Below, piece after piece: positions 13,475 to 34,978 of a DNA stretch of 64,000 nt (its first letter is position 1; every line of letters starts with the position of its first letter). Source of the stretch: Bryoerythrophyllum caledonicum. Its lineage: Eukaryota > Streptophyta > Bryopsida > Pottiales > Pottiaceae. A program made the translations under genes and the position numbers. The stretch is from positions 27,373,535 through 27,437,534 of the forward strand of contig OZ020520.1 in assembly GCA_963971425.1 (NCBI GenBank). Direction: 5' to 3'. The notes under the pieces are model-generated. The model was not told the DNA's origin. It searched no databases and was given only the letters and a program-made list of their open reading frames with translations.

Positions 13475-13486
13475 TTCGGCATGGGT
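13475..13486. repeat. left target-site duplication of LINE copy C
   Basis: TTCGGCATGGGT here and at 42268-42279. The first TTC of the right copy may belong to the TTC tail, so the true TSD is 9-12 bp. It lies inside the ORF2 of copy A. Confidence 0.85.
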
Positions 13487-14078: not shown

Positions 14079-14192
14079 AAGCACAGATTCAGATCCAGCA
14101 AAGAAACGCAGTCGAAGAAGAGGACAAGCCGTACCAAGCACAGATCCAGATCGAGCAAAGAATCGCAGTCAAAGAAGAGGACAAGCTGTACC
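14079..14192 (+). repeat. 57-bp tandem duplication in the copy C 5'UTR
   Basis: Two adjacent 57-bp units starting AAGCACAGATTCAGATCCAG and AAGCACAGATCCAGATCGAG, differing at a handful of bases. Confidence 0.9.
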
Positions 14193-14298
14193 AGCATACT
14201 CAGGATCGCGGCAGCACACGTCTGCAGTGGCAACCGCAATAGAAGCGAACACCGAACGAAAAGTTGTACCAGCGTAGTGAAGATCAAGGCTACACACG

Positions 14299-14436
14299 AC
14301 TGCAGCAGATGCAAATATCGAACAGCTGCAACGAAAAAAGAAGAAGAGATCAGCCACAAGCCGGACAACTGCAGCAGATACAAACACCAAACAACTGCAA
14401 CGACAAGAAAAGAAGAGATCAGCCACAAGCCGGACA
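14299..14436 (+). repeat. 69-bp tandem duplication in the copy C 5'UTR
   Basis: Two adjacent 69-bp units, each starting ACTGCAGCAGAT and ending ATCAGCCACAAGCCGGACA. Together with the 57-bp pair it shows that the leader expands by local duplication. Confidence 0.9.
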
Positions 14437-15773
14437 GATTCACTCAGCCGCAAGCAACAGACAAGCAACAAGCTGCTCCGAAATTGCACCAATCCAACAA
14501 GGAGGACATACACGCATTTCATGTAAGTTCTCTCTCCCCCTCCTATTGCAATAGAGTCATAGATTGTTTGCAACACATAAAAATAAAACAACCTTCCCTC
14601 ACAAATGACAACGACCTAAAAAATCCAACACACACTAACAGTATCAGCACAGATAGAAATAAAGATAATAGTAAAACCTTACCTTTAATACGAGTTGGTT
14701 CTCTCATCACGCGGAAGCTCTGCCTCTTGGAGTGCAGGACAAAGTACCATTGTCACCTGCGCAGATCAGAAGGCCAGGAACGTCAAGACACAGAAAAAAA
14801 CAACAAGACCCACGCCGACTCAACTCGACCGCAGTGGACTGACAACAATTCGAACACCGCCCCGAAACGAAGCAGCAAAGAACAACAAGACGGAGAGTAC
14901 AAAAACAAGATCAACACTCACTTAAAAGCATACGGACCCCCACCAACAAATCGACCTCCAGCTGCTCGAAGAAAATTTCAATCGGAACCAGGCCGACCTC
15001 TAACCTACATCCCGCGTTCTTATATATTCAGTCTTCTTTACGCATTCTCTTGTGCACAACTAACCCCATACATACACAGCAAGGATAGTACTAACCCAAA
15101 AAAAATCATTACTAACCATATCTATCTAGCAGACGAAGAACAGATAAACGCACCCTCATGCGCGTCAAGGTGGAACTTCACCAAACAGACCGCCTCAACA
15201 AGACGCCAACCCCGATCACCAACAAAGCAGTACCGACCGAAGTCGCCGAAAGTTTGCCCACAGGAGCCGCAGCGAACTGTCTAGACATACCACGCGAACA
15301 CACAGCGACAGCATCAGGCTCGCGAAACTGCAGAACATACGAAGCATCAACACAAGGACACACAAGAACACGGCATCGTAGCACCGGAGCTTCAGACCAG
15401 CCTGCTACAGGGACACAACAAACACACACGAAGAAAGAATGCAGACACAACCCCAAGACACAGCCCCAAGACACAGCCAACATACGAGAGCAGTAGGAAG
15501 AACGAAGGCCAAAGAACTCAAACCCCACCTCACCCAACTGCAACCACAGTTCAAGACCACCAAGCATCAGGAGGAGGAAGATGCCAACGTAGCCTACACA
15601 TAACGAGCCCCCAAGGACAACCAAGACCCTACATCGCGGAACGGCTCACTGGAGTAAAGTGGCACAGAACTATTTCTCCCGACCAACCCAACCTACGGCC
15701 AGACAGAGACGCGCCCCATTCCAAGTCGCAGCACCCTCCATCCCGAGGGCAGGAGAATCCACGTAAGGCTCCA

Positions 15774-17405
15774 GTGATGATGCACAGAAGAGACATAGAG
15801 TACTTGGACACAGACATGGAGATGGAACTTCAAGAGAGGAGCCCCGACAAGACACCCAGTTCAAAAACAACAAGGAGGGAAGGTGCACCAACCAGTAGCA
15901 GCAAGAAGAAAAGAACTTCCTCAGCTGAAAAAGGTAAGGCACTCCAAACGCCAGAACTTACAATATTCAAATTTTGGCTAGGGTTCCCTGCTATGGAGGC
16001 CTTGGCGGTAGAGGAAGGGGCTGAAGAATTATTCAGTGGAGAAACGGCGGAGGACATGGTCACGAGAGGACTCAAAGAGGAGGAAGCCATAGAGGCATCC
16101 AAAGCAAGAGTGGCATTCCCCCGCATCCCACAAGTATTCTACCCCATGGCAAGAACGGGAGTTGAAGGACAACATTACAACCTCACGCAAATACCGTTTG
16201 ACATCAAAACAAGTAAGAATTCCGGGCTATCCATTGATTTCCATGTGGCTATCTTCTTTGAAACCCCGAAAACCCCTCTCATGCATGATGATGTTAAGAA
16301 CATGATTAAGGCAAGGCTAAAGAAGATGAATATTATTCTTGGAATAGAACTCATCGATCCTATTGCAATCCAATGTCTAAACATAAAAAACGGAAAAACC
16401 AAAGGGGTATGGGCGGGATGCATTAAACTACATCTTCTTAAACCAGAAATTGATGGATTAATGCTACTTAAGGGCCTTCGGCCCTTCATTCTAACAATTG
16501 ATGGAGAATGTGTAGTGGGCAAAGTATGTAAAACCTATCATGGAATTGCCAAGGGCTCTAATTTATCCGTGAAGGTCAAAAGCGATGCCTTGGTGGGAGT
16601 CTCCGCGCAAGCACTCTTCAAAGAAGCACTTGGAAATAGTTTCCACCGGGGACATGAGTTCGAAATCACGGGGGTACAAAAGGCCACCAATGATTCACAT
16701 GCCTTCATCATTGCTACAACCCCACAACAAGTGAAGAAGATACTAGTGCATCATATCACCTTGCGGGGAGAAGTCTTGCAAGCAAGACAAGTCCTTGACA
16801 CAAAAGGACCCAAAGGTACTATCGAAACTAAAGCTAAAAAAGATGCATTGACTCTTACCCTCTCACCTCTCCCCATCTCACTTAATGTTGAAAGCACCAC
16901 CCATGAAATTTATAGAGTCATGGGTGGAGCTAATGTAAGATCAATTTGGTTCCACCGGGACAACGGCACTAACCACAATGGTAGTGCCAATGTTGTATGT
17001 TCTAATGCCATTGTTTATAGAACTTTTGTGAAGAAAACACATGTACTTGGTGGGAATTATGTGGACTTCTCACCCCACCGAAGAAGCTTGGAAGGAATCG
17101 AACCACCAACCGATGAAGAAGTGAAAGCTTTTGGCTTTGACAACATCAACACGGCAATTGTTAACACTATATCCACCTTCAACATGCAAGAGAAGAGTGA
17201 CAACATCACCAAAAGAGACATGGTGGAATTATTGGAAGAGAACAACAAGAAGATGAGGCAAGAAAATAGAGACTACACCAACAAACTACACGATGAATTG
17301 AAGATACAAATGGAAGAAATTCAAGTGTCCATGCTTGCCACACTTGAAGGTATGAGAGCCTTTGCGGGCAAAGTCAACAAACCAAGACTCGAGCCAAACA
17401 TGTGA
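15774..17405 (+). CDS. LINE ORF1 protein, RRM-like and coiled coil (copy C)
   Basis: Intact 543-codon ORF. The N-terminus (about 1-60) is charged and Ser/Lys-rich. The conserved FKFWLGF motif follows at about 64-70, then an acidic stretch. A first RRM-like segment spans roughly 190-265 (IAIQCL strand, WAGCIKLHLL strand, helix, GECVVGKVC strand). A second at about 360-450 has the pattern LTLTLSPLPI, helix, SIWFHRDNG, HNGSANVVC, helix, YVDFSPHRRSLEG. A heptad-type coiled coil occupies about 480-530 (MVELLEENNKKMRQEN). By analogy with other LINE ORF1 proteins it should bind element RNA as a multimer; the fold calls are mine from secondary-structure pattern only. It ends AAC ATG TGA and overlaps the next frame by 4 nt. 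The first of three consecutive ATGs was taken as start. No CCHC knuckle is seen, unlike many plant L1 ORF1 proteins. Confidence 0.85.
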   Translation: MMMHRRDIEYLDTDMEMELQERSPDKTPSSKTTRREGAPTSSSKKKRTSSAEKGKALQTPELTIFKFWLGFPAMEALAVEEGAEELFSGETAEDMVTRGLKEEEAIEASKARVAFPRIPQVFYPMARTGVEGQHYNLTQIPFDIKTSKNSGLSIDFHVAIFFETPKTPLMHDDVKNMIKARLKKMNIILGIELIDPIAIQCLNIKNGKTKGVWAGCIKLHLLKPEIDGLMLLKGLRPFILTIDGECVVGKVCKTYHGIAKGSNLSVKVKSDALVGVSAQALFKEALGNSFHRGHEFEITGVQKATNDSHAFIIATTPQQVKKILVHHITLRGEVLQARQVLDTKGPKGTIETKAKKDALTLTLSPLPISLNVESTTHEIYRVMGGANVRSIWFHRDNGTNHNGSANVVCSNAIVYRTFVKKTHVLGGNYVDFSPHRRSLEGIEPPTDEEVKAFGFDNINTAIVNTISTFNMQEKSDNITKRDMVELLEENNKKMRQENRDYTNKLHDELKIQMEEIQVSMLATLEGMRAFAGKVNKPRLEPNM

Positions 17406-18157
17406 CCTTCAAAGACCACATAGTAATACATACATACCCTCTAGTATATTATACTACTCAATATAGTCTAGACTCTTCATACAATACTAGAATAGACTAC
17501 ATAGGTGAATTTCCTTACACATATTGTATTTCCCTCATGACTAAATACAAAAAAACATACGTATATACATATTGGAACATACGTACGTATACGATCAAGT
17601 ATACAAATACAGCTATATATACATGTACGGAGACAGATACATATATGGATACATATACAAATACAGATCAGAATACGGACACGAATACATCTACAAGTAC
17701 AGATACGAATACAGGCATAAACACACGTACGGGAAAAATTACTAATGTAATTACAAATACAAGAAACACATGTACGGGAAAAAATGGAATAAATAATAGA
17801 AGGAAGAAGAAAATAAGTATCATAACTACAATGAACAGTAATACGTATACTGATACGTACACCAGGGAATATACTAATACGTATACCAGCAAGTACACTG
17901 ATATATATACTCGTACGATTAAAGACAAATACACTATAACATATACTGATACCGATATAAATACAGATACATATACGGATATACATACAAATACAGATAA
18001 GAATACAGAGACGAATACATCTACAAGTATAGATACGAATACAAGCATAAACACATATACGGAAAAAAATACTAATGTAAATACAAATACGAGTAAGGAT
18101 ATGGACACGGATACAGATATAGGTATACATACTCAAACAACAACTTATCAACCACCG
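17402..18157 (+). pseudogene. LINE ORF2 N-terminal leader, Thr-X repeats (copy C, first part)
   Basis: Open frame in -1 relative to ORF1, overlapping its stop. It encodes FKDHI and LVYY motifs shared with copy B, then long stretches of Thr alternating with Asn, Asp or Tyr, built from a degenerate ACNNAY hexanucleotide. It is cut at 18157 by copy B after exactly 252 codons. The frame resumes without shift at 32609 and continues to a stop at 32996-32998. No ATG lies at its upstream limit; the first in-frame ATG is some 45 codons in, so initiation could use that ATG or depend on frameshifting from ORF1. Function unknown. Confidence 0.65.
18146..18157. repeat. left target-site duplication of LINE copy B
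   Basis: TATCAACCACCG, repeated exactly at 32597-32608. The two copies bracket copy B. Confidence 0.95.
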
Positions 18158-18405
18158 AAGAAGAAGAACGCCGGTACCCAAAGGGAACCGGCGTGAATAA
18201 AGTGTCTGTTCGTTCCATTGCTAAGACCATGCCCACCGGACAAGGAATTAGCGAACTGGAACTACTTCCCCCTTTCGAGGGTAGACACTATGTAACGAGT
18301 AGCCAGAAACCAACCAACAACGATCAACCACGACCAAACTAACTAATCAACAAAAAGCAAAACCAAACAGGCAGTCAATCAGGAAGAGACAGAGTGGCGA
18401 AGTTC
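18158..18405 (-). other. 3'UTR, terminal hairpin and TTC tail of LINE copy B
   Basis: Read on the minus strand, the 3'UTR ends with hairpin CGCCGGTTCCC / GGGTACCGGCG (18169-18193, one T-T mismatch, TTT loop) followed by TTCTTCTT to the TSD. Further upstream AGTGTCT and AGACACT are inverted, enclosing a block conserved in copies A and C. Such 3' structures are known recognition sites for RT in stringent LINEs; here the role is inferred. Confidence 0.75.
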
Positions 18406-21400
18406 CTAAGGGGGGTCTTGCCTATCAGGGAGGACTTGGTTGTTTTCGATTTTGCGTTTATGCAGTAAAATAGACATGGCATGTTGAATAGCGATGGTGT
18501 TGATATTTTTAAAGGTAGTTTTAATTGTATCAATGGGTATCTTGAAGGTATCTTCGAGAGTTTTCATAGATGGGATAAAGGTGGTGGCACGAGCGCCGGA
18601 TGTGATAACAATAAGGGGGTCCACATTCCAGCCGAGGGCAATGATGTCGTCTATGAGGGGTTGGTATTTATCTATTTTGTTTTGTATTGTTTCCGGGGAG
18701 AATCTATCGTTGCAATATGTAAATTCGATGAATTGAATGGTGTAGTCTTGGTTGATGTTCTCGGGTGGTGGGTCGTTGTATGGTAAACCTTTGACACAAA
18801 GAATGTCCGGTTTGAGCCTAGCGTTGCAATGACATCTTTGGGTCATACATGAGCATGGAAGTAGCCATGGGGGGACCGTGTTTTCTTGTGGATTGCTATT
18901 AAAAGTGCCGGCGTTCATAAGTATGAAACATCTCGATTTATTGTAGGAGGTGATTAGTTTTCGGACTTCCCATACCGCTTTGTTATGTCTTTTAACAATT
19001 AGGGAGTGTATGTGGTGGTTTTGGCATTTGAGTAGCACATGAAGCCATGTGTCGGGGTCCGTTGAGGGGCATATGGGGCATGTTATGGATGGGAACCTTT
19101 CTATTCCAAAGAAGAGTTGTTTGCGAGCGTTTCCCATGTACTGACCCGTACGGAATTTGATGAGGCACGTTATTTGTGAGTCCGAGATGATGGGGTTTTT
19201 CCAAAAGTTTGTAGAGAGTTCATTGTCTATGTCGTTATTGTTAGTCCATTTTTCTATGTTAGGAATATTTTCTGAGATTGTATCCAGGTTGTTGTAGAGG
19301 TCTTGTTTTTTGAGATATTTGCCTAAAAATCTAATTGGGCCTTTGTCGGGGGTATCTTCTTTGGAAGGCCAATCTTCTTTTTGAAAGTAGTATGGGGTGG
19401 CATGAGCATGTTCGTGAGGGTCTTTGGCGTTTTTGTGTGTTTTTTCTCGGCCTTCTTTTGCAAGTTTGTCTGCTTGTTCGTTGCCATCAATGTTGGCATG
19501 GGCTCTGACTTTGTGAAGGGTTGTGATTTGTGTACGTTTTTGTAACATTTGTACCATTGATGTTAGTATGGTTTGGTCGGGATGACTGTTGTGAAGGGTT
19601 GGGTGTGTTATTTGAGTGTTTAGTAGGTAGAGTGCATTTATACAATCGGTGAATATATGTGCAGGTTCATTTTTGTATTTTGTTGTGATGATTTGTAGTG
19701 TTTTGTGAATGGCCATGAGTTCTGCTCTAAGGATATTTTGTAGTCCATGGAGTCTTTTGGCTAGTTTAATTTCTTTGGTAGAATTATATATGCCATAGCC
19801 AGCTTTTTCTCTTCGCCAAGAGCCCGGGCTAATTTGTTCCGGTGGTTTAAAGGAGCCGTCGGTGTAATAACTGTATGCGGGGTTAAATTTTGGTGTGGTA
19901 TGAGTTGGGTAGTCAGGGAGAGGGGGAGGTATGACGGAGTAGTTTAATGTGTTGTTGTCATAGTTTAATTTTGACCAATTTTTACTTTTGTTTACGGGGG
20001 TTTGTATGGGTGTTGGTGGGGCCGGTTTTGTGTATGGTTGTTGTATGTCTAGATTGTCTGTTATGGAGGTAAGTTCCGCAAGTTGTTCTAGGGAGCCCAG
20101 GTTTTGATTTTGATGATGGACGCATAGTATTTGTAATGTAGATGGCTCTATTCGGGGTCTTTTTAGCTCGGGTGGGATATTAGGTTCTTCGTATGGTATT
20201 GTGTCTGCTTCGAATAATGCAATGATGTGGGAATCTCGGAATGGGTTTGAATGTTGGTTGTTGTTTTGGTACCAATTACTGTTCGGTGTGACGATGATTG
20301 TTTTTGTGTTATTTGGATCGTGTTTGGCGGCAAGTCTAGCCCAATGTATGGCTTGTTCTATGTCTTCCTCGTTGTGGGGGTGGGCTATTCCATTTCCGAT
20401 CCATTTGTGTTCAAAGGCCTTGCCTAGGGATCCAAATATTTTGTCTCTTTCGTACGGTGAGTAGAATTTATTTAGTTTGGTAGGACATGTGATCGGGGAG
20501 GAAAAGTATGAGTGTTCGATGTTAAAGGATGATATTGGTGAGTCTAAAATGGGGGTGGATATTGTGTATTGCGCATTTTTGAGGGGGTCAGTTTTTGGTA
20601 TTCGATATTTATACCTTTGGTAGAGCCATATTAGTTCGGTTTCAAAGGGTTGGGTTGTTGGTTCAATGTTTGTAGGGGTTTGTAATTTTGTATGATATTG
20701 GTTCCATAACCATTGGAGCCAGGTAATGGGTATGGTGTGTAAATGTCGGCCGTTTTCTTCGTATAGATGTGCTTGATTGTTATCTATTTGAATTGTGTTT
20801 GAGGATGTAAGGATATCATTTTCGGGGTTGCATTCTGTTGTGTAGATGTTTAAGAGTGGGATAATTATGGGTGGCGTTACGGACCTTGAGTCTGAGGATT
20901 GTTCTTGTGGATGGTGGGCAAGGATGATATCTGAGTATATTTTGTTTTGGATCTTTTGGTAGTATTGTTTTAATTTTTCAGTGTTATGTGTGGAGGTATT
21001 GGTGTCATGCCGTGGAAAAAGGTCTCTTTGGGGGAGCCATTTATTGTATGTATTATCATTGTGTTGCCATTGGCATAGATATTTTGTGTAGGTATTTTGT
21101 ATGTTATTTGTGTCTGTGTGTTGGATATGTTTATGGTTTATGATATTATTAATGGGGTATGTGGTAGGGTTTTTGGGGATGTATGTTGGGGGGCGGGGGT
21201 GGTATGTATGTGGAGGGTTAGGGGGATTGGTTGGTGTGGGAATATTTCTTGGGATGATGTTATTGTTGAGGGTGATGAATGGATCTTTAAGTGTATGAGA
21301 GTATGGGTGTATGTTGCAAGGAGTATGACATATAGTGGGGCATGTTAGGTGGCAAAATAGTTGTTTAGCAACACTTAGGGCACTCTTTATTAGTTTAGAT

Positions 21401-24400
21401 GGGGTGAAGTGGTAGGTTTTGAAGTCCTCATTGTTCATGATGTGTGTACCGTTAGGTAAGGTAATTTGGTTTAGTTCAAAAATATTTTTTGAGAGGAGTT
21501 TTTGTAGAAGCTTTTGGGAGAGTTGGGCATTTAGTGTGTTATGATTTAATGTTTCTTGGCGCCATAGTATTTCTAGTGTTGTGGGATTAGTGAGGAAGTT
21601 CGGGAGCGTACTTTTAAGGTGGGCTTTAGCTGTATGTTTTAATAAGAAGAATGTTCGTGTTATTGGTGATCTTATGCAGTCACTTTTTTTAATTCTCGGT
21701 ATGTTTTCAGCGCCACCATATTGGGCAAGGACATAGTGAGTTAATCCATTATATATTTTCCCAAGTCTTCCTTTATCGTTTAGAGCATTTTGCAGTTGTT
21801 CGCCTATACATCGGAGGTATGCGTTTTTGAGGGAGAAAGCTTCAAGTCCAAATAGGTTATGTGGTAGTTGGGTTATTGCGTTTGACATACATTTTGGTAA
21901 TCCGCATATGGTTTTTTGTATGGCTATTATTTTTTTATCAAGTTTTTTGATAGCTGGCATAGAGTATGGTACACCGTAGAAATTGTATGCCACACCTGGG
22001 CGTAGTACGGTATCAACCATTTTTATTTTTTGTTTCATGGTGGCTGGGCATGTTGTTAGTTCTTTGCATTGTTTGATGAGTTTTGTCGTTGTGGTGTGGA
22101 TTTGGATTTTCCATTTTAGTGAGGGAACAAGGTTTGTGCCTAAGTATATGTATGGTTCATTTTGGTGTAGTATGGGGATTGGTTGATTGCGGTAATTGAT
22201 GTTCGAGGCTTGTATTAGGGCTTTGAAAGTGGTAGGATTCAATTTGGATTTGTTTGGGCATCCGGTAGCGGCACATTTTGGGACACCTACGTCCATACCG
22301 GCCCATTTACAATACCTATCAATTTTGTTTAGTTGTATTTGGATTGATTTGATTTTGTTAGTTATGGTGGCTAGGTCATCCGCGTATGCGGCAGAGTTTA
22401 TTATGACCTGTGATGTGCCAAAAGTGTATCCGTAATTTCCTCTTTCTAGCCATCTAAGTAGTGGTTCTAGGAATATAATGAATAGGTTTGGGCTGAGGGT
22501 ATCCCCTTGTATAGTTCCTCTTTGGATGGGTATAGGTTTTGTTTTCCCAAAGTGTTTACCGGTATAACATGTAGATGATTTAGAATAGATGTTTCCAACA
22601 AGTGTAGTTGCATCTTTTGCGTAACCAAGGTCCATCATTATTGCTAGAAGTCGGGCATGGTCAATTGAGCCAAAGGCATTTTTGAAGTCCACGTATAGTA
22701 TGTATATATCTTGGTTAGTAAACTTTGCGTCTTCTAGTGCGGCTATTATAGTTTGTATTTGTCGTGCGGTACTTCTCTCTGCTCTAAATCCTTCTTGACT
22801 ATCATGTAGGATTTTGAATTTTTCACCGTATGAGGATAGTATGGAGGTCAGTGTCCTGGCAAAGAGTTTGTATATGGTGTTAGCTAGTGCAATTGGTCTA
22901 TGGTTGGGTAGTATGGACGGGTCGCCTTTTTTGTATAGTAGAATTGTTGTACTTAATTTCCATGAGTTTGGTATCTGTTTTTGTTTATAGCAGTGGGAGA
23001 AGAACAGAAATAATAGCTTGTGAAATCTTGGAGGCATGTTTTTTAGTATTGAGTTTGGTATACGGTCTGGGCCTGGGGCTTTATTATTTCCAAGATTTTG
23101 AAGGCATGTGTCGTATGTGGCTTTGTTGAGGTATTTATGAAGTGGAATTTCTGGTTCGCCCCGTTTGTCAAGGGTATATCCGTCTAGGTCGTGCCAAGGG
23201 TATTGGCGTATTGCACATGTGCATTCTATTGTATGTTGTGGCTGGTAATTACATGTTAGTACTGTTGGTCTATTGGTTTTTGTTTGTTGGTTAAATATTT
23301 CATTCGCAATGTCTTCGGGGCTAGTTAGAATATTATTATATTGATCTTTGATACAATCCATTGGTGGGGATTCGAGGTTTTTAAAGATTTTTTTGTTAAT
23401 ATTTTTGGGGCTGATTTCGTGTAGTTGTCTATATTTTGAGATGGTTTTTTTAATGTTTTCTTTTGTGTATTTTGTGATTATTTTCCGGGCTTGTATGTTG
23501 GCATTTTTTGCAATTATCGCGATATCTTTTATCCATGTATCGTGGGGAAGGTCCGGAGGCGGCGGGGTAGGGATTTGGATGTGTTGTATAGTTAGTAGTT
23601 CGTTGTTTATGGGGTGGTTACGCCATTGAGGGTTGATTTTTATAATTCTAATGGTTTTACGTATGGTATGGTATGTGGTTAAGTGTTGTTTCCAAGTTTT
23701 AGAAAGTTTGCGGGGTAGATACCCGCCTTGTTGAGAGGTTCTGTTTGTCATTTGGGGTATTGGGTGTGCTCTACAAGTTTGTTCTAGTGTATCAGAGATT
23801 TTATTGATGAGTTTGTCTAGAGAGTGGCATGCTTCTTGCCATTGAGTTTGTGTTAATTGGCTACTGTTTTCAAGAATGTTTATGAGGTAGTCTATTTGTA
23901 CGGAGTTTTCTTCGAAGAATTTTGTGTTGAATTTTTCTATATTGGTTTTTGGGATGGGGTTGAGTATGCGTATAGTGTCTTTGTTTGGGATTGTAGGAGT
24001 TCTACTAATTAGTGTGTTATTTGGGATGTGCAGTTGTATGGGTGAGTGGTCCGAATTGAGAATAATATCTTTGTTTGTTGTAGAGGTGTATTGTGTGTTG
24101 TTGTTTGTATTTATATAGAAACCATCTATTAGACTCCAATCACTATAATTGTAGCCACCTTGTCTAGAGAATTGAGTATCGGTATTGATGTAGGTGAAGT
24201 TTAAGTTTTCTGTGAAGCGACGCCATTGGTAATCAATGTTTTGAGGGGGAGTGTGATGGTTTCCATTTTGGCGGCCAATTAGCGCTATGTCTCTATTGAA
24301 GTCTCCACATAATAGGTATGTATGATTGGGATGATTATTAATATGGGTTGTTATAGTGTTTTGTATATCTAAGAGAAATCTAGTATCTTCGGGATGGGAT

Positions 24401-24527
24401 GGCATATACATGTGAAAGATTAACCACGGTTGTAGTGGGTGATTAGTGATTTTAATTATTTGAATGTATGGTGATATGTGCATTGGGGTAGGGATTTTGT
24501 TGATGTTGCCGGGGAATGTATATTTTT
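18406..24527 (-). pseudogene. LINE ORF2 main block: APE (rear part), RT, RNase H, CCHC, RLE-like (copy B)
   Basis: An uninterrupted 2,025-codon frame begins at an internal ATG (24483). Domains in order: rear of the APE endonuclease (CGDFNRDIALIG, DWSLIDGF, NSDHSP); RT fingers/palm ([44 protein letters not shown] at 22375-22386, YIYLGTN); a long linker; RNase H (YTDGSF near 19860, AELMAI, FTDCINAL, DGNEQADKLAK); CCHC finger CPIC-x9-H-x4-C; then a C-terminal PD-type domain (KPD at 18804-18812, IEF with Glu at 18724-18726, NKIDKYQPL). All expected catalytic residues for RT and RNase H are present. It is only disconnected from its N-terminus by a frameshift at a run of seven A (near 24527) and a TGA at 24773-24775. 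I call the whole ORF2 a pseudogene on those breaks, though this block itself looks functional. Confidence 0.92.
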
Positions 24528-25429
24528 TTGTGTATTAATGTAAGGAGGCCACCGCGGCCCGGTGTGTATGGTCTCCTTTGTTGTATGCATCTTGTAAGTG
24601 CATGTGTGTTGTTAAAGATGAGTTTATAGTTCTGAAATATATTTTGTATATATTTTGTAGATTTTGTGGCGGATAGTTTTGTTTCTTGTATAACTATAAG
24701 AGCCGGTGGTGTGTCTGTGTTTGCGACTAGAGTTTGTAAGCTAGGGAGGGCAGTGTTTAGTGAGGAGGCAGTTCATGTGATTATGTATGTATTTTCTTGG
24801 TTTGGTCTAATGTTTTGATTTTGAGGAGGGATGTAGGGAAGAGGTGGGGGTGGGTGGGTGTATTCTGGTATAGGGTCTAGGCATTTTAGTGATTCATTTA
24901 TGAGGTTGTTAGGGAGGTAAGAGAATTTTAGTTTTATTATATCATTTGAGGGTGGTATGACTTGACTATGTAAGAAGTCGTATAGTCTTTTATGTATTGA
25001 GTTTTCATGATTTATAATATTTTGGCTGTCTACTAGGAATTGAGTATAGGGGTGTGGAGTGTAAATGTGTCGTTCTGGTGGGTTTTGTAAGGTTAATAAG
25101 GTTTGTAGGAGTGAATTAGTCCATGTAATTGTGTTCCAATTTTGTGGATTTAGAAGTTGGTTACATTCATCTATGCTTGGATGAGTGGTGATTATTAGTG
25201 CATGTAAGATGTGGGGTGGTGGATGCGTATTTTTTTGTTGTATGTATTGGGCAATGTTTGGGTGGGAAGTGTTGTGTATGTGGTGTAATGTGTGTGTGTT
25301 TTTTAGAAATGGTGCGAAGGGTTTTGCAATGTGTTCATATTCTGGTTGGAGTTTTATGGTATTAGGTATAAAGTAGATTTTGGCATTTTTCTTATGTGAT
25401 GTAGGATGTCTTTTTAGTATATTGGGCAT

Positions 25430-25483
25430 GGGTCCCGGGTTGGTTTCAATGTCTCCTCCTAGAAGTAGTAGAAGTTTGTGGTA
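25430..25483 (-). other. 2A-like motif, canonical (copy B)
   Basis: Encodes YHKLLLLLGGDIETNPGP, identical in sequence to copy A. Expected to uncouple the ORF2 N-terminal extension from EN-RT during translation. Confidence 0.8.
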
Positions 25484-25939
25484 TATATGTTTAGTGGTGT
25501 ATTTTATAGGCTTTGTTGTGTTATTAATGGCTTGTTGGTTTGGGGGTAGGTGGATGTTTGTATTTTGTCTGTGAGTTGTGGGTTTATTTATTTTTATAGT
25601 AGGTGTAGTTGTTTTCGTCTTTAGTTTATTATTTGTCCATGTGTTTTTTGTGGTTGTTTTTGTTTTAGTAGTGTATGGATGTATGTATGATTGGTTGTAT
25701 TTTATCTTGGTTGTTTTTGTCCGTGTGTATATGTAACTGTTATGTTTAAGACTATTTGTATGTGGGTTTATGTTGGTTTTTAAAGTGGTTTTAAAGTCCT
25801 TTTTTTCATATGCGGTGTTATTATATACTTTGTGGTTTGTACAATTGTTTGTTTTGGTGTTTGTATTAGTATTTGGTATGAAATATGTTTTGGCATTCTT
25901 TTTGTGCGAAGTGGGGTGTCTTTTTAATATGTTCGGCAT

Positions 25940-25993
25940 GGGTCTTGGGTAAGTCTTCATGTCTCCTCCAATTAATATTAGAAGTTTGTAGTA
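25940..25993 (-). other. 2A-like motif, degenerate (copy B, upstream duplicate)
   Basis: Encodes YYKLLILIGGDMKTYPRP followed by the same MPNILKRHPTSHKKNAK context as the canonical motif 510 bp downstream, so the two are duplicates. NPGP has become YPRP; Gly-to-Arg at the skipping site should abolish activity. Confidence 0.8.
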
Positions 25994-26102
25994 GATGGGT
26001 TTTTTGTTTTGTTTTAGTATTTTTTGTTTTTGAATGTGACTTTGGTGGTTTTTTGATTGTATGTATTTGTTTTTGTGTGTGTGTATGTCTATGTATGTGT
26101 TA

Positions 26103-26142
26103 TGATTCCCGCCGACCTTCTTTGGAGACCGGCGTTCTTCTT
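26103..26142 (+). mobile_element. 40-bp micro-insertion: LINE 3' hairpin plus TTC tail
   Basis: TGTATGTGTTA occurs at 26092-26102 and 26143-26153 and brackets 40 bp absent at the same place in copies A and C. The insert is a GCCGACC...GGAGACCGGCG hairpin (26111-26134) followed by TTCTTCTT, the terminal sequence of this LINE family but in plus orientation, opposite to copy B. It looks like an extremely 5'-truncated retrotransposition event. It keeps the ORF2 frame open (40 + 11 = 51 bp). Confidence 0.85.
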
Positions 26143-26779
26143 TGTATGTGTTACGTTGATGGTGTGTTGTTGTCTTTGTGTGTGTATATGTATTTTTATT
26201 TGTTTTTATATTAGTATTTATTCGTATGTTCGTATTAGTATATGCCTCGGTTTTTGTCTCGGTGTTTGTATCAGTATCCTTGTTAGTATTCGTGTTATAA
26301 TTTGTACTAGTATACGGGCCAATATTGATATTAGTATTTGTATTAGTGTAAGTATCAGTATCAGTATTTGTATTAGTATACGTAACAGTATATGTATCTG
26401 TATACGTACCATTATATAGATATTTATACAGATACGTACTAGTATACGGAAAAAATATATTGATATTTATTTCAATCAGATTCGTATATATTCTTACTAT
26501 CATTAGAATTTCTATTTTTAGTAATTCTATTTTTGGCATCTTCGGCGCCCCCTCGGCCGGCGAGACAGAAATCTCCCCTTCTATTTTTAATATTCTACAT
26601 ATTCTCAACAAATTCCTACTCTTCAATCGCAAACTCTTCTCATCTTTATATATATAAATTTTAATATTACTATTAACTTTCCTTTTATCCCTGTAATTCA
26701 TATTCCACTTTGTATTTTTGGTTTGTACTATTTTATTATTACTACCTTTTCTATTTATTTTTACTCTAAATTTTTTTTT

Positions 26780-27517
26780 TCTCATTACAAGTTTGGTTAA
26801 TTTCCCATCTTTGATTTTTGAATTTCTTAGGATGCATATTCTATTTTTAGTACATCTGTTTATAGCTATGTTCTTCATATTTGTATTCTTATTATAATTA
26901 ATTCCCATTACTATTTTGGTGAATTTTCCATCCCTTATATTTGAATTTCTTATGATACATATTCTATTTTTAGTACTGCTGTTTATAGCTACGTTCTTCA
27001 TACTTGTATTCGTATTATAATTAATTCTCATTACTAATTTTGTTAATTTTCCATTCCCTATTTTGGATTTTCTTAGGAAGCATATTCTATTTTTAGTTAT
27101 ATTGTTTGTTGCTATATTCCTATTATTTGAATTCTTATGATAATTATTTCTCGTTACTATTTTGGTTAATTTTCCATCCCTTATTTTGTAATTTCTTAGG
27201 AAGCATATTCTATTTTTAGTACTATTGTTTGTTGCTATGTTCTTATTATATGTATTCTTCTGATAATTATTTCTCATTACTAATTTGGTTAATTTTGCAT
27301 CCCTCATTTTTGAATTTCTTAGGAAACATAATCTATTTTTAATGTTGTTTTTTGTTCCTACGTTCTTATTATTTGTATTCTTATGATAATTATTTCTCGT
27401 TACTATTTTGGTTAATTTTCCTTCCTTTATTTTTGGTTTTCTTAGGAAGCATATTCTATTTTTAGTACTGCTATTCGTTGCTATGTTCTTATTATTTGTA
27501 TTCTTATGATAATGGTT
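26780..27517 (-). repeat. six tandem 41-aa (123-bp) coding repeats (copy B)
   Basis: Each unit follows the pattern NNYHKNTNNKNIATNSSTKN, then R-I-C-F-L-R-N-S-K-I-R-D-G-K-L-T-K, ending VMR or VTR. Six units of exactly 123 bp fill 738 bp. Units differ by 20-40 percent at the protein level but keep frame, Cys, and basic residues. Copy C has four units (33077-33568) and copy E none. Confidence 0.9.
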
Positions 27518-27976
27518 TTTTACCTTTATTTTCTTCTTACATATCCTCTCCGATTTTCTTCTTTTCTTTTTAGTATTGCTTGCTCTATTTGAAATTTTTG
27601 AAAATTTAAAAATATCTATCTTTTTCCTATTTAATTTATTATATCTCTTTCTACTCTCCTTGCTTTTCCTATCTTTAGCCATTTTCATATTCCTTGCCTT
27701 TTGATGATATGTAGTTATAAATGTGTGGGTTGTCTTTGTATATGTGTGTGTATGTGTAGTTTTATTTGGTTTTGTATGTCCCTTAGAATTTGTTTTGGTA
27801 TTTGTATCTATATTCGTATCAATATTTATGACAATACTTTTATTAGTATTTGAACCATTATTCGTATTAGTGTTTGTATTGGTTTTTTTATTTGTACTAG
27901 TATAGGTATTAGTATTCATTTCAATGTACGTATCAGTATACATACCAATATATGTACAAGTATCAGTATACGCGCC

Positions 27977-28570
27977 CTAATGCATATCAGTATACGTACG
28001 CGTATACATATCAGTATACGTATCCATATATATATTTGTATACGTATCAATATAGGTGCCAGTATATATGCCATTGTACGTATCAGTATATGTATTAGTT
28101 TTTATGTTAGTATTTGAACCAGTAGGTGTATTAGTATATGTGGCAGCGTATGTACCAGTATTTGTACCAGTATTTGTGTTATATATCATATGGTGTGGTA
28201 ATAATTCAAGTTTTGTGAGTAATTTACGATGTATTCTTTTGGTATAGGTGATTATTTTGTGTAGAATACAATTTTTTTTGGTATAGTATTGAGTATGGTC
28301 TTTGAGGTATTTCGTATAGCATTTGTATTGAGAATAGCATTGAATACAGTATTTTGTATAGTCCCATATGGAGTATGGTCTATATATTCTAGTAAGGTGT
28401 ATGTATTGTGTATGATTTTTTATCCGGTGTACTAGTTTTGTATTTGTATTTATATACTTGTATACTATTATGTAATTGACTATATTTCTATATGAACACT
28501 CTACTCCGTGTTGTATTTTGTAGTAAACTAAGGAATGTATATGTTTTGCTATGTGGTCTTTGAAGCTCAC
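27977..28570 (-). pseudogene. LINE ORF2 leader, 5'-most part (copy B)
   Basis: 197-codon open stretch overlapping the ORF1 stop by 4 nt in the -1 frame, as in copy C. The start encodes SFKDHI and SLVYY, matching TFKDHI and PLVYY of copy C; later it turns into Thr-Tyr-Thr-Asp repeats. It ends in a stop just before the next open block (27943), which I read as one damaged leader rather than a separate gene. Confidence 0.6.
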
Positions 28571-30186
28571 ATGTTTGGCCGGTTCTCTTCAATTCTTGCA
28601 TTGTTGACTCTTCCCGTGAATGCTCTCATATTTTGGAGGGTGGCTAGCATTGATTCTTGGATGCACTCCATTTGTGTCTTCAATTCGTCATGTAATTTGT
28701 CGGTGTACTCCTTGTTTTCTTGCCTTAGTTTCTTGTTGTTCTCCTCCAATAACTCCACAATGTCCTTCTTGGTGATGGCTTCATTCTTCTCTTGCATGTT
28801 GAACGTGGTAATGGTATTGACGATTGCGGTGTTGATGTCTTCAAACCCAAACTCCTTGATTTGTTCGGCGGTAGGAGGCTCCTCCCCCTCTAAGCTTCTT
28901 CTATGCGGTGCAAAGTCCACATAGTTTCCCCCTAGTTCGTGAGTCTTCTTCACAAAAGTCCTATACACTATGGGGTTAGCACAAAGGACGTTGGCACTAC
29001 CGTTGTGGTGGGTGCCATTGTCCCGGTGGAACCATATAGAGCGCACATTAGTACCTCCCATGATTTTGTATATTTCATGGGTAGTGTTTGCAAGGTCCAA
29101 GCGGATAGGGAGGGGAGATAAGGTGAGGGTTAGAGCATCCTTTCTAGACTTGGTTTCGAAAATACCTTTTGGTCCTTTGGTGTCAAGGACTTGTCTTGCT
29201 TGCAAAATTTCACTTTGCATGGTGATGTGATGTGCTAGTATCTTCTTCACTTGTTGAGGGGTAGTGGCAATGATGAAGGCGTGTGAGTCTTCTCTTATTT
29301 TTTGGACGCCCAAAATCTCAAACTTGTGGCCCCGGTGAAAGCTATTGCCAAGTATCTCCTTAAAGAGTACTTGAGCGGAAACCCCTATCAAAGTGTCACA
29401 CTTGATCTTCACGGAGAGGTTAGATCCTTTGGCAATGCCATGATAGGACTTGCACACTTTCCCAACTACACACTCATCGTCAATAGTTAGAATAAAGGGC
29501 CTAAGGCCCTTGAGTAGCATTAGTCCATCAATCTCCGGTTTGAGGAGATGCAATTTAATGTTCCCGGCCCACACTCCTTTAGTTTTCCCATTTTTAATGC
29601 TTAGGCATTGGATGGCAATTGGATCAATAAGGTCCTTTCCTAAAGCAATGTTCATTTTTTTTAGTCTTTCTTCCACCATTTTTTTTACTACATCATGCAT
29701 GAGTGGATTTTTAGGTGTTTCAAAGAAGATGGCAATATGAAAGTCAAGGGAGAGGCCAGAATTCTCACAAGTTTTGATGTCACATGGCACTTGGGTGATG
29801 TTGAAATGTTGGCTCATCCCATCGCTTGTTGCCATGGGGTAAAGCATTTGTGGGATTCGGGGGAAGGCCACCCTTGCGTTGCATACTTCCGTAGCCTCAT
29901 CCGCCTTCATTCCCCTTGTGACCATGTCCTCTATGGATTCACCGCTATACAATTCTTCGGCACCATCTTCCAACGCCAAGGTCTCCATGTCTTGGAAACC
30001 TAGCCAAAATTTAAACTTTGAAAATTCTGGGTCTTGGAGGGGCTTACCTTTTTCTGAAGTCGAAACTTTACTCTTCTTGTGGCTGCTAGATACTGTTGTG
30101 CCCTTCTGTAGTGCTCTGATGGGGCTTTCTTCCAAGCCCTCCATGTCGTCGTTGCTGTATTCAGACCTCCTGGAATTCCCTGCCAT
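28567..30186 (-). CDS. LINE ORF1 protein, RRM-like and coiled coil (copy B)
   Basis: Intact 539-codon ORF starting MAGNSRRSEYSND. Same order as copy C: Ser/Lys leader, FKFWLGFQ, acidic region, first RRM-like segment (IAIQCLSIKNG, WAGNIKLHLL, DECVVGKVC), second RRM-like segment (LTLTLSPLPI, SIWFHRDNG, HNGSANVLC, YVDFAPHRRSLEG), C-terminal coiled coil (IVELLEENNKKLRQEN), ending PNM then TGA. About 80 percent identical to copy C by eye, with no stops or frameshifts in either, whereas their ORF2s are broken. Probably the RNA-binding partner of ORF2 in the retrotransposition particle. Confidence 0.87.
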   Translation of the reverse strand: MAGNSRRSEYSNDDMEGLEESPIRALQKGTTVSSSHKKSKVSTSEKGKPLQDPEFSKFKFWLGFQDMETLALEDGAEELYSGESIEDMVTRGMKADEATEVCNARVAFPRIPQMLYPMATSDGMSQHFNITQVPCDIKTCENSGLSLDFHIAIFFETPKNPLMHDVVKKMVEERLKKMNIALGKDLIDPIAIQCLSIKNGKTKGVWAGNIKLHLLKPEIDGLMLLKGLRPFILTIDDECVVGKVCKSYHGIAKGSNLSVKIKCDTLIGVSAQVLFKEILGNSFHRGHKFEILGVQKIREDSHAFIIATTPQQVKKILAHHITMQSEILQARQVLDTKGPKGIFETKSRKDALTLTLSPLPIRLDLANTTHEIYKIMGGTNVRSIWFHRDNGTHHNGSANVLCANPIVYRTFVKKTHELGGNYVDFAPHRRSLEGEEPPTAEQIKEFGFEDINTAIVNTITTFNMQEKNEAITKKDIVELLEENNKKLRQENKEYTDKLHDELKTQMECIQESMLATLQNMRAFTGRVNNARIEENRPNM

Positions 30187-32596
30187 GCCTCTAGGACAAG
30201 TTGGGAGGTCGCTCGGGCTTATTGGGAGGTCGTAGTGAAAAGTAGGGAGGTCGTGAAAGGTAGGGAGGTTGTTGGGGAGGTGTTGATAGGTCGCAAGTGT
30301 GTTTTGGTGGGTCGCAGTGTGGGTTTTAGTGGCCGTTAGGAGGGTCGAGGGTACTGGGAGGGGGGTCGCAGTTGGTTGTCTACGGGGAGGAGTGTGGTAA
30401 GAGAGAGTTGTTGGTGTTGGGTTATCTAGCTTGTTTTCTGTGGGGAGAAGGTGGGGGAGGGTTCTGTGGTGGGAGGGACTGGGTTTGTAGTGTGCGGGGA
30501 GAGAGAGGGGGGAGGTTATGGATAGGAGAGGTTTTGCTACGTTCCCTGTCTGTGTGTATTCTGGATCAGAGGGGAGGGGGGAGACTATACTTCTGCAGAA
30601 GTGGGCTCGGGAGAGGTTTTCAGGTATGGGGGGTCTGCTTGGGTTTGGGTGTAGGGGGATTTATCTGGGTTCGGGATCTGGGGAGAGGAGGTGGAGTGTT
30701 TGGCTACGGGGGTGGGCGGGGAAGGATCTGCTATGGAAGGGGAAGATGGGGAAGAGCGAGGGAGATTGTGCGGTGGGAGGGTTGGGGGGGGCCGAGGTGG
30801 GCAGGAGGGTGGAGAAGGGAGTTGATGCGAGGGAAATACGGAGGGAAATTGAGGTGGGGGACGGAGGGAAGCTGAGGTAGAGAGGATGGGGTGTGTGGAT
30901 GGGCTGTGGGTGAGGAGTGAGAGAGAGGGCGATAGAAATCAAATGAGGGCGAGTGTAGGAGAGAACCTGCAGGGTCTCGCTCACGTCCTCGCGCGTCGCC
31001 TTCTATTTGTTGCTGGTCTTCGTGGCTTTTCCTTCATACCTTGTGTTCGCTGTTGTGTCCGCCTTTTGATGGTCTTCTCTTGTATTTGTGCTGCCTTGTC
31101 TTGTGTTGTTCTGGTTCGTTTCTTTTGTTTTGGGCTGGCTGTGAAGTTTGTTGATTCTCTCCACTGTCCTTGCAGGTTGGCTGCGGCGTTTCTGTTCCTA
31201 CCTTTTTTGAGTCGAATCTCCTCGGATCTGGCTGCAGCTTTGGATCCAAACAAAGTTCTTTCGATGTACAAGTATATACTGCTTCTTTTTGTCTATTAGC
31301 TGTGTTCGTTTTTTATTTTGTTTTTCTAGGGTTTTGTTAGGGTTTTTTTGTTTCGTGCGAAAGTGGCAGCTACGTTTTGTGTTTATGTTTTTATGGGCTA
31401 CTGCTATTGATTTTACTAGTAATTCTGTTCTGTTATACACCTGATTATGGTACGTTTTATGTTTTTTATACTGAATATGCGAGCTGTAATAATTAAAGGG
31501 GTTAGAAAACTTACCTGGATTTTCTGTCGTGGAGTGTTGATGGTGATTGTTGTTTCGGTTGGGCCTGCTAGGCTGTTGTAGTTGAATTCGGTTGCCTCTG
31601 CAGCTGGGTCTTTCGATCCTAGAGTTGAATTTGTTTGTGGTTCTACAGCAGCTTGGCCTAACGTGTCTCGTTTCTATGCAGATTTTTGTCCTGTTCGCAG
31701 TCTTCAGCGGTTGCACTCCAGCCTGGGACTTCCAGCTTGGCGCTTTCGGATTTCTGCTGTATCGTATCAGTTCGGCGTTGGATCCTGTGTCACTTCTGCA
31801 CAATATATTTGTATCCAGTTGGTCTGGTTCGCTGGTTAGCAATCTAGGAGGAGTATCTGTACTGATGTATGCTAGGGTAATATTAAGATTGTACGTCTCC
31901 TGCTCTACGGATTCGTTTGTGTCCAAGCGGTATTTTGTTACTTGCGAATTGTCATTGCGGTTATCAGAAAGTTCTATGTCTGTGAGAGTGTTGTGTCTAT
32001 CATTGCTAGGTGTGTGTACTAGGGGGCATTCTATTGGTACTACTGTGAGTTTAAGGTGTACTAGAAAAAAACAAGCAAAATACACTAAATCTAGGATAAG
32101 CAACAATGAAAGTAAGGTGTATGGGTAAGAAATAGCCTGGTATAGTGCGCAGTAGCTCTTGAGCTCGGATTTGCTAGTCCGTCCTCCAATGTTGTATGTT
32201 GTGGCGCTGGTTCGGAGGGTGTGGGACTTGTGGGCGGCTTGCAGATCTGGGAACTCTCTCAGATTGCGGTAGTCAAGTATGTTGGTACTTTGAAGAGTAG
32301 ATCTGTATCCAACACGAGTCCCAAGCTTTCAGATCTAAAACTCTCCACAGATCCTCCTTCAAATCACCTCGATTTCCTCACTAAAACCTCAGATCTGGAG
32401 CTTGTGAGCCCTTCCAACACTGCCTGCTTCCCAGGCCTAACCCTAGAACCAAATCAGATGCAAAATAGGGGCTCCCAACAAGGTCCAGCACTCCTTGTAT
32501 CCTATAATGTTTGATTTGAGGCTAAGTCCCACACTCCCCCTCACCAGAGATTACGGAGCTCACTCAGCCATCCCCTCTATTTGTGGCTTCACATGC
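30187..32596 (-). promoter_or_regulatory. 5'UTR / internal promoter region of LINE copy B
   Basis: 2.4-kb leader. On the plus strand it shows several GGGAGGTCG motifs at 30200-30300 (GCGACCTCCC-type in sense, also frequent in the copy E leader) and a G-rich, sense C-rich tract to about 30950. ORFs on either strand here (for example 31198-32106 minus, 30372-30875 plus) are not conserved in other copies and are not annotated as genes. Confidence 0.55.
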
Positions 32597-32608
32597 TATC
32601 AACCACCG
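32597..32608. repeat. right target-site duplication of LINE copy B
   Basis: TATCAACCACCG, second copy, identical to 18146-18157. Confidence 0.95.
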
Positions 32609-33076
32609 CAAAAACCAATACACAAAATAGAAAAAATGATAATAATAATATACTACTTCTCACACAAACTAAGTAAAAATTCCAAAAAGAAAAGTATCAA
32701 AACCAAAATAAAAAATAAAAGGAATAAGAAAAAAGATGGGATTAAAATAAATAATAGAAGGAAGAAGAAAATAAGTATCATCACTACATATAACAAAATA
32801 GGAAACAATATAAATGAAAACAATCATAATTTTTTTGTAATAAAGATACATAAGAGTAGAAGGGATTCTAAACCCAAAAATCATCAAAAGGCAAGGAATA
32901 CTAAAATGGCTAAAAATAGAAAAATGAAGGAGAGTAAAAAGAGATATAATAAATTAAATAGGAAGAAGATAGATATTTATAAAATTTCAAAAGTTTAAAT
33001 TAGAGCAAGTAATATTAAAAATAAAATAACAAAAATGAAGAGGATATGTAAGAAGAAAATAAAGGGTAAAGTAGAA

Positions 33077-33568
33077 AACCATTATCATAAGAAAAGAAAT
33101 AATAAGAACATAACAATAAACAGTAGTACTAAAAACAAAATATGCTCCCTAAGAAATTCAAAAATAAGGGATGGAAAAGTCACCAAATTAGTAATGGGAA
33201 TTATTTATAATAAGAATACAAATATGAAAAACATAGCTATAAACAGCCGTACTAAAAATAGAAAATGCTTCCTAAGAAATCCAGAAATAAGGGATGGAAA
33301 ATGCACCAAATTAGTAATGGGAATAAAAAATAATAAGAATACAAATAGGAAGACTATAGCTATAAACAGAAGTACTAAAAATAGAAAACGCTTGTTAAGA
33401 AATTCAAAAATAAGGAATGGAAAATGCACCAAATTAGTAATGGGAATAAAAAATAATAAGAATACAAATAGGAAGACTATAGCTATAAACAGCAGTACTA
33501 AAAATAGATTATGCTTCCTAAGAAATTCAAAAATAACGGATGGAAAATTAACCAAACTTGTAATGAGA
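33077..33568 (+). repeat. four tandem 41-aa (123-bp) coding repeats (copy C)
   Basis: Four units of exactly 123 bp. The last two units are nearly identical to each other (KNNKNTNRKTIAIN start), suggesting recent unit duplication. Confidence 0.88.
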
Positions 33569-34414
33569 AACAAAAATGTTTGAGTAAAAATAAAAAGAGA
33601 AGATAGTAATAATAAAAGAGTACAGACAAAAATAGAAATTGGAATATAAACTACAGGGATAAATGGAAAAATAATAGTAATATTAAAAAATTTATATATA
33701 AAGTTGGGGAGAGATTGCGATTAAATAGTAGAAATTTGTTGAGAGTATGTAGAATTTTAAAATAGGAGGTGGGATTCATGTCTCGCCGGCCGGAGGGGCG
33801 CCGGGGGCGCCAAAAATAGATTTACTAAAAATAGAAATTCTAATAAAAGTAAGAATATATACGAATCTGATTGAAATAAATATCAATCTGTTTTTAGAAA
33901 TCATAGTTTTAGACAAAATATGTTTAAGAAAGAAATCTTTTAGAAAACTCATTTTTTCAATATACGGGTACATAAGTGATACGTATACTGATACTTATAC
34001 TAATACATACACCGATAGTATACTTATACATATATTGATACAAATACAGGTATGTATTTTGATACACATACTGATATGTATATAAATACAAATACTTATA
34101 CTTGTACAAATGCAAATACCAATACAAATAGTGGTACGTGTACTCATACGAATACTAACACAAATACTAACAAAGATACTGATACAAATACCAAGACAAA
34201 AACCGTGACATATACTAATAAAAACATACAAAAGAATACTAATATAATACCACATAAAACTACATACACACACACAAAGACAACCACACACCATCAACGA
34301 AACACATACATATACATACACACATACAAAGACAAACACACACAATCAAAAAAACACAAATACCAAAGCCACATTCAAAAACAAAAAATTCTAAAACAAA
34401 ACAAAAAACCCATC

Positions 34415-34468
34415 TACTACAAACTACTAATATTAATTGGAGGAAACATGGAGACTAACCCAAGACCC
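34415..34468 (+). other. 2A-like motif, degenerate (copy C, upstream duplicate)
   Basis: Encodes YYKLLILIGGNMETNPRP. Both the leading Asp (now Asn) and the Gly of NPGP (now Arg) are lost; predicted inactive. Confidence 0.8.
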
Positions 34469-34924
34469 ATGTCGAACATATTAAAAAGACACCCCGCTTC
34501 GCACAAAATGTATACCAAAACATATTTCATACCAAATACTAATACAAACACCAAAACAAACAATTGTACAAACCACAAAGTATATAATAACACCGCATAT
34601 GAAAAAAAGGACTTCAAAGCCACTCTAAAAACCAACATAAACCCACATACAAATAGTCTTAAACATAATAGTTACATATGCACACGGACAAAAACAACCA
34701 AGATAAAATACAACCAATCATACATACATCCATACTCTACTAAAACAAAAACAACCACAAAAAACACATAGACAAAAAATAAACTAAAGACGAAAACAAC
34801 TACACCTACTATAAAAATAAATAAACCCACAACTCACACACAAAATACAAACATCCACCTACCCCCAAACCAACAAGTCATTAATAACACAACACAGCCT
34901 TTAAAATACACCACTAAACATATA

Positions 34925-34978
34925 TACCACAAACTTCTACTACTTCTAGGAGGAGACATTGAAATCAACCCAGGACCC
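34925..34978 (+). other. 2A-like motif, canonical (copy C)
   Basis: Encodes YHKLLLLLGGDIEINPGP. The Thr-to-Ile change is at the variable position of DxExNPGP, so the motif still fits the consensus. Confidence 0.78.

What the first reader, a model, noticed from the sequence alone, without database searches (positions are those of the whole stretch)
18158..32596. A complete 14.4-kb non-LTR retrotransposon with a perfect 12-bp TSD
Seen: TATCAACCACCG at both ends, and a 5' block (GATGGCTGAGTGAGCTCC) shared with the independent full-length copy C (14.3 kb joined). LINEs are usually 4-8 kb, so this family is near the upper size limit, mostly through a 3-kb ORF2 extension and a 2.4-kb leader. Two insertions with the same 5' and 3' ends make the boundaries firm.
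Basis: partly seen in the sequence, partly recalled or inferred. Interest (0 to 1): 0.75.

Follow-up and report, generated by a model that had tools for sequence, protein, structure and literature searches.

The report
Giant LINE with PCIF1-like domain
This is a real, unusually long jumping gene of the LINE type, about 14.4 kb, and its main protein carries a part related to the human enzyme that marks the first letter of messenger RNA, apparently changed so that the usual reaction should no longer work.

Summary
Confirmed. A minus-strand non-LTR retrotransposon fills 18158-32596 (14,439 bp) between perfect 12-bp repeats. It lies inside a second full-length copy (C, 14,330 bp, own 12-bp repeat), which lies inside a third, A. 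Three more copies measured in the 437-Mb genome are about 12.98, 14.58 and 15.85 kb with 12-15-bp duplications.

The coding content is the news. ORF2 holds an endonuclease, R2-like RT, PCIF1-family (cap m6Am methyltransferase) domain, RNase H and a CCHC/RHN motif. 23 of 23 domain copies scanned match PF12237, but catalytic NPPF aligns to HPHN and 28 of 30 loci read HPH: normal activity is probably lost. ORF2 starts with a 3.8-kb open, repeat-rich leader with a 2A core near its end and overlaps ORF1 in the -1 frame. ORF1 is only 29-71% alike in most pairs of copies whose ORF2 cores are mostly 96-98% alike. A Dualen-like second endonuclease is suspected, not shown. Structure prediction failed once and did not finish once.

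The parts
18158..32596 (-). element B, full-length non-LTR retrotransposon (5' end at 32596)
   Evidence: 12-bp target duplication on both sides; ORFs and domains
18146..18157 (.). target-site duplication, 3' side of B
32597..32608 (.). target-site duplication, 5' side of B
30187..32596 (-). 5' leader of B, 2,410 bp
   Evidence: first ORF1 methionine at 30186
28567..30186 (-). ORF1 of B, 539 aa; no Pfam family above cut-off
   Evidence: third-position bias between B and C
24776..28588 (-). N-terminal extension of ORF2, -1 frame to ORF1, Thr/Asn/Tyr/Lys-rich
   Evidence: 1 stop in frame against 114 and 131 in the other frames; shuffles mean 102.7, min 80
26778..27513 (-). six 123-bp (41-aa) repeats inside the extension
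   Evidence: 0 stops in frame against 49 and 50 over 26651-27640
25940..25963 (-). degenerate 2A-like core (DMKTYPRP)
25430..25453 (-). canonical 2A/StopGo core (DIETNPGP) preceded by KLLLLLGG
18406..24534 (-). ORF2 core, 2042 aa open frame
24037..24423 (-). C-terminal part of the APE-type endonuclease
   Evidence: Exo_endo_phos_2 3.7e-4, below cut-off in B; whole domain above cut-off in copy D
22138..22923 (-). reverse transcriptase (RVT_1)
   Evidence: 2e-24; best solved relatives are R2 proteins
21016..21147 (-). chromodomain-like stretch (weak)
   Evidence: below the Pfam cut-off
20275..20679 (-). PCIF1-like methyltransferase-family domain, NPPF replaced by HPHN
   Evidence: PF12237 2.1e-8, above cut-off
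19447..19875 (-). RNase H
   Evidence: 1.4e-12
18973..19080 (-). CCHC zinc motif followed by RHN
   Evidence: read from translation; similar in loci at about 65% identity, with RHD in some
18655..18813 (-). possible restriction-like endonuclease core (KPD...E), motif only
   Evidence: no match to a solved nuclease
18158..18280 (-). 3' end: predicted hairpins, then (TTC)n tail
   Evidence: 3 sequences only
13487..18157 (+). copy C, 5' part (ORF1 15777-17405)
32609..42267 (+). copy C, 3' part
5660..13486 (-). copy A, 3' part, interrupted by C
42268..42933 (-). copy A, 5' remnant
   Evidence: no convincing target duplication of A found
56555..64000 (+). copy D, seen from its ORF1 frame to the window end, with a more distant ORF1; its 5' end was not located
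50090..52977 (+). E, fragment of a related family with the PCIF1-like domain

Best explanation
B is a structurally full-length copy of a large family of non-LTR retrotransposons (LINEs). Shown: ends, target duplications, size class, two ORFs, the 2A core motif, EN, RT, PCIF1-family domain and RNase H, and the pairing of very different ORF1 modules with nearly identical ORF2 modules. Inferred: the element RNA is translated into ORF1 protein and, by -1 frameshifting or non-AUG reinitiation near the ORF1 stop, into a giant ORF2 polyprotein. The 2A sequence releases the repeat-rich leader from the EN-RT-RNase H enzyme, which inserts the RNA by target-primed reverse transcription, recognising the 3' hairpin and TTC tail. 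The PCIF1-like domain has probably lost normal N6-adenine methyltransferase chemistry. My best guess is that it was kept as an RNA- or cap-binding module of the insertion complex; that last step is inference, about 0.3 likely.
For: Duplications and nesting. Domains. PCIF1 family: 23 of 23 members of alignment A6 match PF12237, best 7.8e-15; the A6 profile lists the two PCIF1 sequences 6irx (0.015) and 6irv (0.69) as the top 2 of 3 hits; in the genome 150 matches were scored of 2,614 candidates, every row over the cut-off, and 0 of 14 control genomes rang. Catalytic change: NPPF aligns to HPHN; HPH in 28 of 30 loci and in 4 of 4 window copies. 2A: canonical core in 18 of 20 distinct copies with the region read. 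Open leader. Coupling: from where the ORF2 frame opens inside the ORF1 end there is no stop before its first AUG over 133 codons in B and 63 in C (other frames 11 and 5, 7 and 4), nor over 88 in L009. Purifying selection: third-position excess in ORF2 core and ORF1. Recent activity: 42 of the 150 PF12237 rows share E-value, score and range, 33 of them with a 3,087-aa open frame (counted by eye).
Against: The comparison with solved PCIF1 is weak by itself; a single sequence and a 4-row profile found only designed TPR proteins, at E 0.091 and 0.0012. The finished structure model is useless (mean pLDDT 32.8) and the second job had not finished at my last look. In the repeat-bearing part of the leader B and C differ evenly over codon positions (33, 44, 43; single changes 14 synonymous, 59 not), so its amino-acid sequence looks unconstrained. 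I saw no classical slippery heptamer at the ORF1/ORF2 overlap (by eye). Nothing here tests 2A activity or any enzyme.
Confidence: 0.8

Rival explanations
1. The PCIF1-like domain is still a methyltransferase with an altered active site and methylates the element's RNA cap, other RNA or DNA.
For: The domain is recognised in 23 of 23 members and HPH is nearly invariant (28 of 30), as expected of a working motif rather than decay.
Against: N553A and F556G in PCIF1 reduce activity (PMC11550742, passages); here both ends of the NPPF motif differ in the alignment.
Confidence: 0.2
2. The element is a Dualen/RandI-type LINE with both an APE endonuclease and a restriction-like endonuclease (RLE), plus new domains.
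For: APE-type EN, RT closest to R2 among solved structures, RNase H, and a CCHC-RHN-KPD...E tail laid out as I recall it for R2-like RLE elements.
Against: No match of the tail to a solved nuclease at E up to 10; no Pfam hit above cut-off; no tree against named LINE clades was possible.
Confidence: 0.5
3. The long open leader of ORF2 is not translated; it is open only because of its repeat composition.
For: Codon positions change evenly in the repeat-bearing part; simple ATACAN repeats lack stops in any frame (by reasoning).
Against: 1 stop in frame against 114 and 131 in the other frames and a shuffle mean of 102.7; the same frame is open in L009 and over long stretches in C, though C has several stops further on, and it carries the 2A sequences.
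Confidence: 0.12
4. The differing ORF1 modules reflect old lineages whose ORF2 was homogenised by gene conversion rather than by template switching during reverse transcription.
For: A 600-bp stretch is 99-100% identical in A, B and C while other parts differ by several percent; nested inverted copies invite conversion.
Against: Copies on several chromosomes are affected, and 5'/ORF1 switching is something I recall for mammalian L1.
Confidence: 0.35

Closest known systems
Dualen/RandI LINEs (PMC3636483 and PMC4640811, passages; Kojima and Fujiwara 2005 recalled, not read)
   Same: APE-type endonuclease, RT and RNase H; CCHC-like tail
   Different: RLE not demonstrated here; PCIF1-like domain, 2A peptides and giant ORF2 leader are not mentioned in the passages I saw
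2A-bearing non-LTR retrotransposons (trypanosome and sea urchin elements; PMC4981915 passages)
   Same: D(V/I)ExNPGP core, with a leucine-rich upstream context like the LLLLSG type in PMC12846837 (passages)
   Different: two or three 2A-like copies in one ORF, one of them ending PRP in the 17 copies where the pattern found it; no activity test
R2 retrotransposon proteins (PDB 9nl2, 9nl3, 9dou)
   Same: closest solved RT, E 1.3e-31
   Different: as I recall, R2 has one ORF, no APE endonuclease and no RNase H, and inserts in rDNA; the five target duplications seen here differ
PCIF1/CAPAM (PF12237; PDB 6irx, 6irv)
   Same: about 135 aa of the family domain
   Different: NPPF replaced by HPH in 28 of 30 loci; embedded between RT and RNase H
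Retrotransposons with captured cytosine methyltransferases (PMC5890265, search listing and start of abstract)
   Same: methyltransferase-family domain captured by a retrotransposon
   Different: a different methyltransferase family; details of those elements recalled only

Membership tests
non-LTR retrotransposon (LINE) | RT of RVT_1 type, target-site duplication, 3' tail, no LTRs seen | tested here: met
non-LTR retrotransposon (LINE) | other copies with shared ends | tested here: met
   B, C and three further copies; 3' end in 40 scored places; 5'-end search unanswered
Dualen/RandI | APE endonuclease | tested here: met
   Exo_endo_phos 3.3e-6 in copy D, above cut-off
Dualen/RandI | restriction-like endonuclease | tested here: inconclusive
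   motif only; no profile match; structure of the tail not predicted
Dualen/RandI | RT between early and late LINE clades in a tree | not tested
   no named LINE sequences at hand; only PDB comparison
Dualen/RandI | RNase H | tested here: met
2A/StopGo | D(V/I)ExNPGP core | tested here: met
   18 of 20 distinct copies; L006 broken, L007 NPGS
2A/StopGo | ribosome skipping activity | not testable with these tools
   needs a translation assay
PCIF1 methyltransferase family | PF12237 above cut-off | tested here: met
   23 of 23 match at E up to 0.01
PCIF1 methyltransferase family | catalytic NPPF | tested here: not met
   HPH in 28 of 30 loci, the other two DPHN and PPHN
chromodomain | PF00385 above cut-off | tested here: not met
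   best 0.0041, below cut-off; listed for 5 of 8 stretches

The most novel reading that the evidence does not exclude
A LINE family has captured a PCIF1-type cap-methyltransferase fold, disarmed its catalytic motif, and uses it as a reader of the RNA's capped 5' end in the insertion complex, helping 13-16-kb RNAs to be copied to full length, while its ORF1 half is exchanged between lineages.
Probability: 0.2. Interest if true: 0.88.

Novelty: new variant of a known kind. Interest (0 to 1): 0.62.

Why it matters
I saw no report of a PCIF1-family domain in a LINE in the listings of my searches of the held library (two searches listed only 15 of 9,162 and 8 of 87 papers; Repbase and most subscription papers could not be searched). 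If the domain binds cap or RNA, it would be a new way for a LINE to handle its own RNA and secure full-length insertion, which bears on why LINE copies are so often 5' truncated. The family also offers a natural experiment: one nearly constant ORF2 beside ORF1 proteins as little as about 30% alike. The many like-scoring copies with a 3,087-aa open frame suggest recent activity.

Tried and rejected
Chance concatenation of two families: rejected, the order is shared by copies elsewhere. Target duplication of copy A: one short search, none convincing. Relatives in viral contigs and in prokaryote genome contigs: none confirmed. Rfam at gathering threshold and tRNA: nothing. Restriction-like endonuclease by profile against solved structures: no match. 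Alignment A1 misplaced fragments and was not used. The host organism was not identified.

Limits of counts: of 30 PF12237 loci, 4 (L022, L030, L031, L042) gave under 180 aa free of stops; of the other 26, 21 went into A6 with two window rows, 23 rows in all; L024, L033, L041, L043 and L047 were left out by choice. Some ORF1 rows are partial (D, L016, L017, L018, L021), and the ORF1 of L014 was assigned to the split neighbouring copy by position. The upstream 2A-like core was looked for by pattern, so forms outside the pattern would be missed; D, L014 and L020 showed none.
Full report
Observation. The 12-bp sequence TATCAACCACCG flanks 18158-32596 exactly and occurs nowhere else in the window; the 5' block occurs only in B and C. 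Self-comparison shows three nested copies: A (minus) is split by C (plus), and C by B (minus). C has its own perfect 12-bp duplication TTCGGCATGGGT. B is 14,439 bp and C, counted from its two parts, 14,330 bp. D (plus) runs off the window and E is a fragment of a related family.

Genome context. The window lies in an unnamed 437-Mb genome of 894 contigs. With the 2,042-aa ORF2 core of B, 23 places were scored of 14,501 first-look candidates: B itself at 100% and 22 others at 97-98%; 16 of 23 had no stop inside, and 3 of 23 had an open frame of 3,192-3,757 aa with no stop inside the match. Three further copies were measured end to end, at about 14.58, 12.98 and 15.85 kb, with 15-, 13- and 12-bp duplications. 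Their 5' ends carry a related AGCTCCG stretch within about 20-50 bases of the duplication. With B and C, five of five measured copies lie between 12.98 and 15.85 kb; these were not drawn at random. The 3'-terminal 200 bp matched 40 scored places of 1,650 candidates. The tail is a predicted hairpin followed by TTC repeats; among three sequences three pairs are kept through change on both sides, but some are broken and the covariation term is 0, so support for the fold is modest.

Coding content. ORF1 of B is 539 aa with no Pfam family above cut-off. The ORF2 core holds RVT_1 (2e-24), RNase H (1.4e-12) and PF12237 PCIF1_WW (2.1e-8, above cut-off), and part of an EN below cut-off; copy D shows the EN above cut-off. 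Among solved structures the RT is closest to R2 proteins (1.3e-31), and no chain named as an L1 protein is listed up to E 10. The tail has CCHC (C-x2-C-x9-H-x4-C), RHN and KPD...E, like the tail I recall for RLE-bearing elements, but no profile confirmed it. The chromodomain match stays below cut-off: listed for 5 of 8 stretches, best 0.0041.

PCIF1-like domain. B, C and the distant fragment E each match PF12237 on their own at 9.7e-10, 1.5e-9 and 3e-9. In the genome 150 matches were scored of 2,614 candidates, every row above the cut-off, best 59.2 bits, and 0 of 14 control genomes ring. In alignment A6 23 of 23 members match, and its profile lists PCIF1 chains 6irx (0.015) and 6irv (0.69) as its top two of three hits; poorer queries missed PCIF1. 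In the 6irv alignment PCIF1's NPPF lies against HPHN. HPH is present in 28 of 30 loci, including loci 43-57% identical to B; the other two read DPHN and PPHN, and none reads NPPF. A review passage says that N553A and F556G reduce PCIF1's activity (PMC11550742). I infer that normal catalysis is lost and that something else keeps the domain conserved. The model from four close sequences failed; the job on A6 had not finished.

ORF2 leader and 2A. Upstream of the EN the ORF2 frame of B is open for about 3.8 kb, with 1 stop against 114 and 131 in the other frames and a shuffle mean of 102.7, minimum 80. It holds Thr/Asn/Tyr-rich repeats and six basic 41-aa repeats. Between B and C, changes in the repeat-bearing part fall evenly on codon positions (33, 44, 43), unlike the ORF2 core (44, 29, 99) and ORF1 (95, 71, 251): the leader stays open, but its sequence seems free. 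C has several stops further along this frame. A canonical 2A core lies near the end of the leader in 18 of 20 distinct copies whose region was read; L006 is broken there and L007 reads NPGS. An upstream 2A-like copy ends in PRP in the 17 distinct copies where the pattern found it (repeats of one copy removed by eye). L009 and L015 have a further variant core (GGELEINPGP) upstream. The ORF2 frame overlaps the ORF1 end in the -1 frame in B, C, D, L009 and L011 and, from where it opens, has no stop before its first AUG in B (133 codons), C (63) and L009 (88). Translation is therefore probably coupled to ORF1, by a means not established.

ORF1 exchange. Core ORF1 identities among 13 rows, some partial, run from 29% to 100%; most pairs lie at 29-71%, and a few (B with L021, L009 with L015, L014 with L019) at 85-100%. 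The ORF2 cores of the genome copies involved are 97-98% identical to B's, C's is 96.4%, and two stretches of D measured are 88.8 and 90.3%. Sliding identity shows mosaics within ORF2 as well. Recombination between lineages, by template switching or gene conversion, is the best reading.

Verdict. The new content is the domain make-up. It is a new variant of a known kind: a LINE, possibly of the Dualen type, with a PCIF1-family domain that I did not see reported in the listings of my searches.

Noticed in passing
52984-55757: A Tc1/mariner-type DNA transposon (HTH_Tnp_Tc3_2 and DDE_3) on the minus strand with inverted ends of about 560-585 bp, 98-99% alike.
   Followed up: partly
about 20897-21496 (B) and the matching parts of A and C: A 600-bp stretch of ORF2 is 99-100% identical in A, B and C although other parts differ by several percent.
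   Followed up: partly
genome-wide, PF12237 matches: 42 of 150 rows share E-value, score and profile range and 33 of them a 3,087-aa open frame, pointing to a recent burst (counted by eye).
   Followed up: no
L009 2272-3270: The start of ORF2 in L009 encodes a stretch rich in hydrophobic residues before an extra 2A-like core, unlike B and C.
   Followed up: no
3225-3842: Fragment of a distantly related ORF1 (45-50% aa identity).
   Followed up: no
1146-1325: A nearly perfect 25-bp tandem repeat, 7.2 copies.
   Followed up: no
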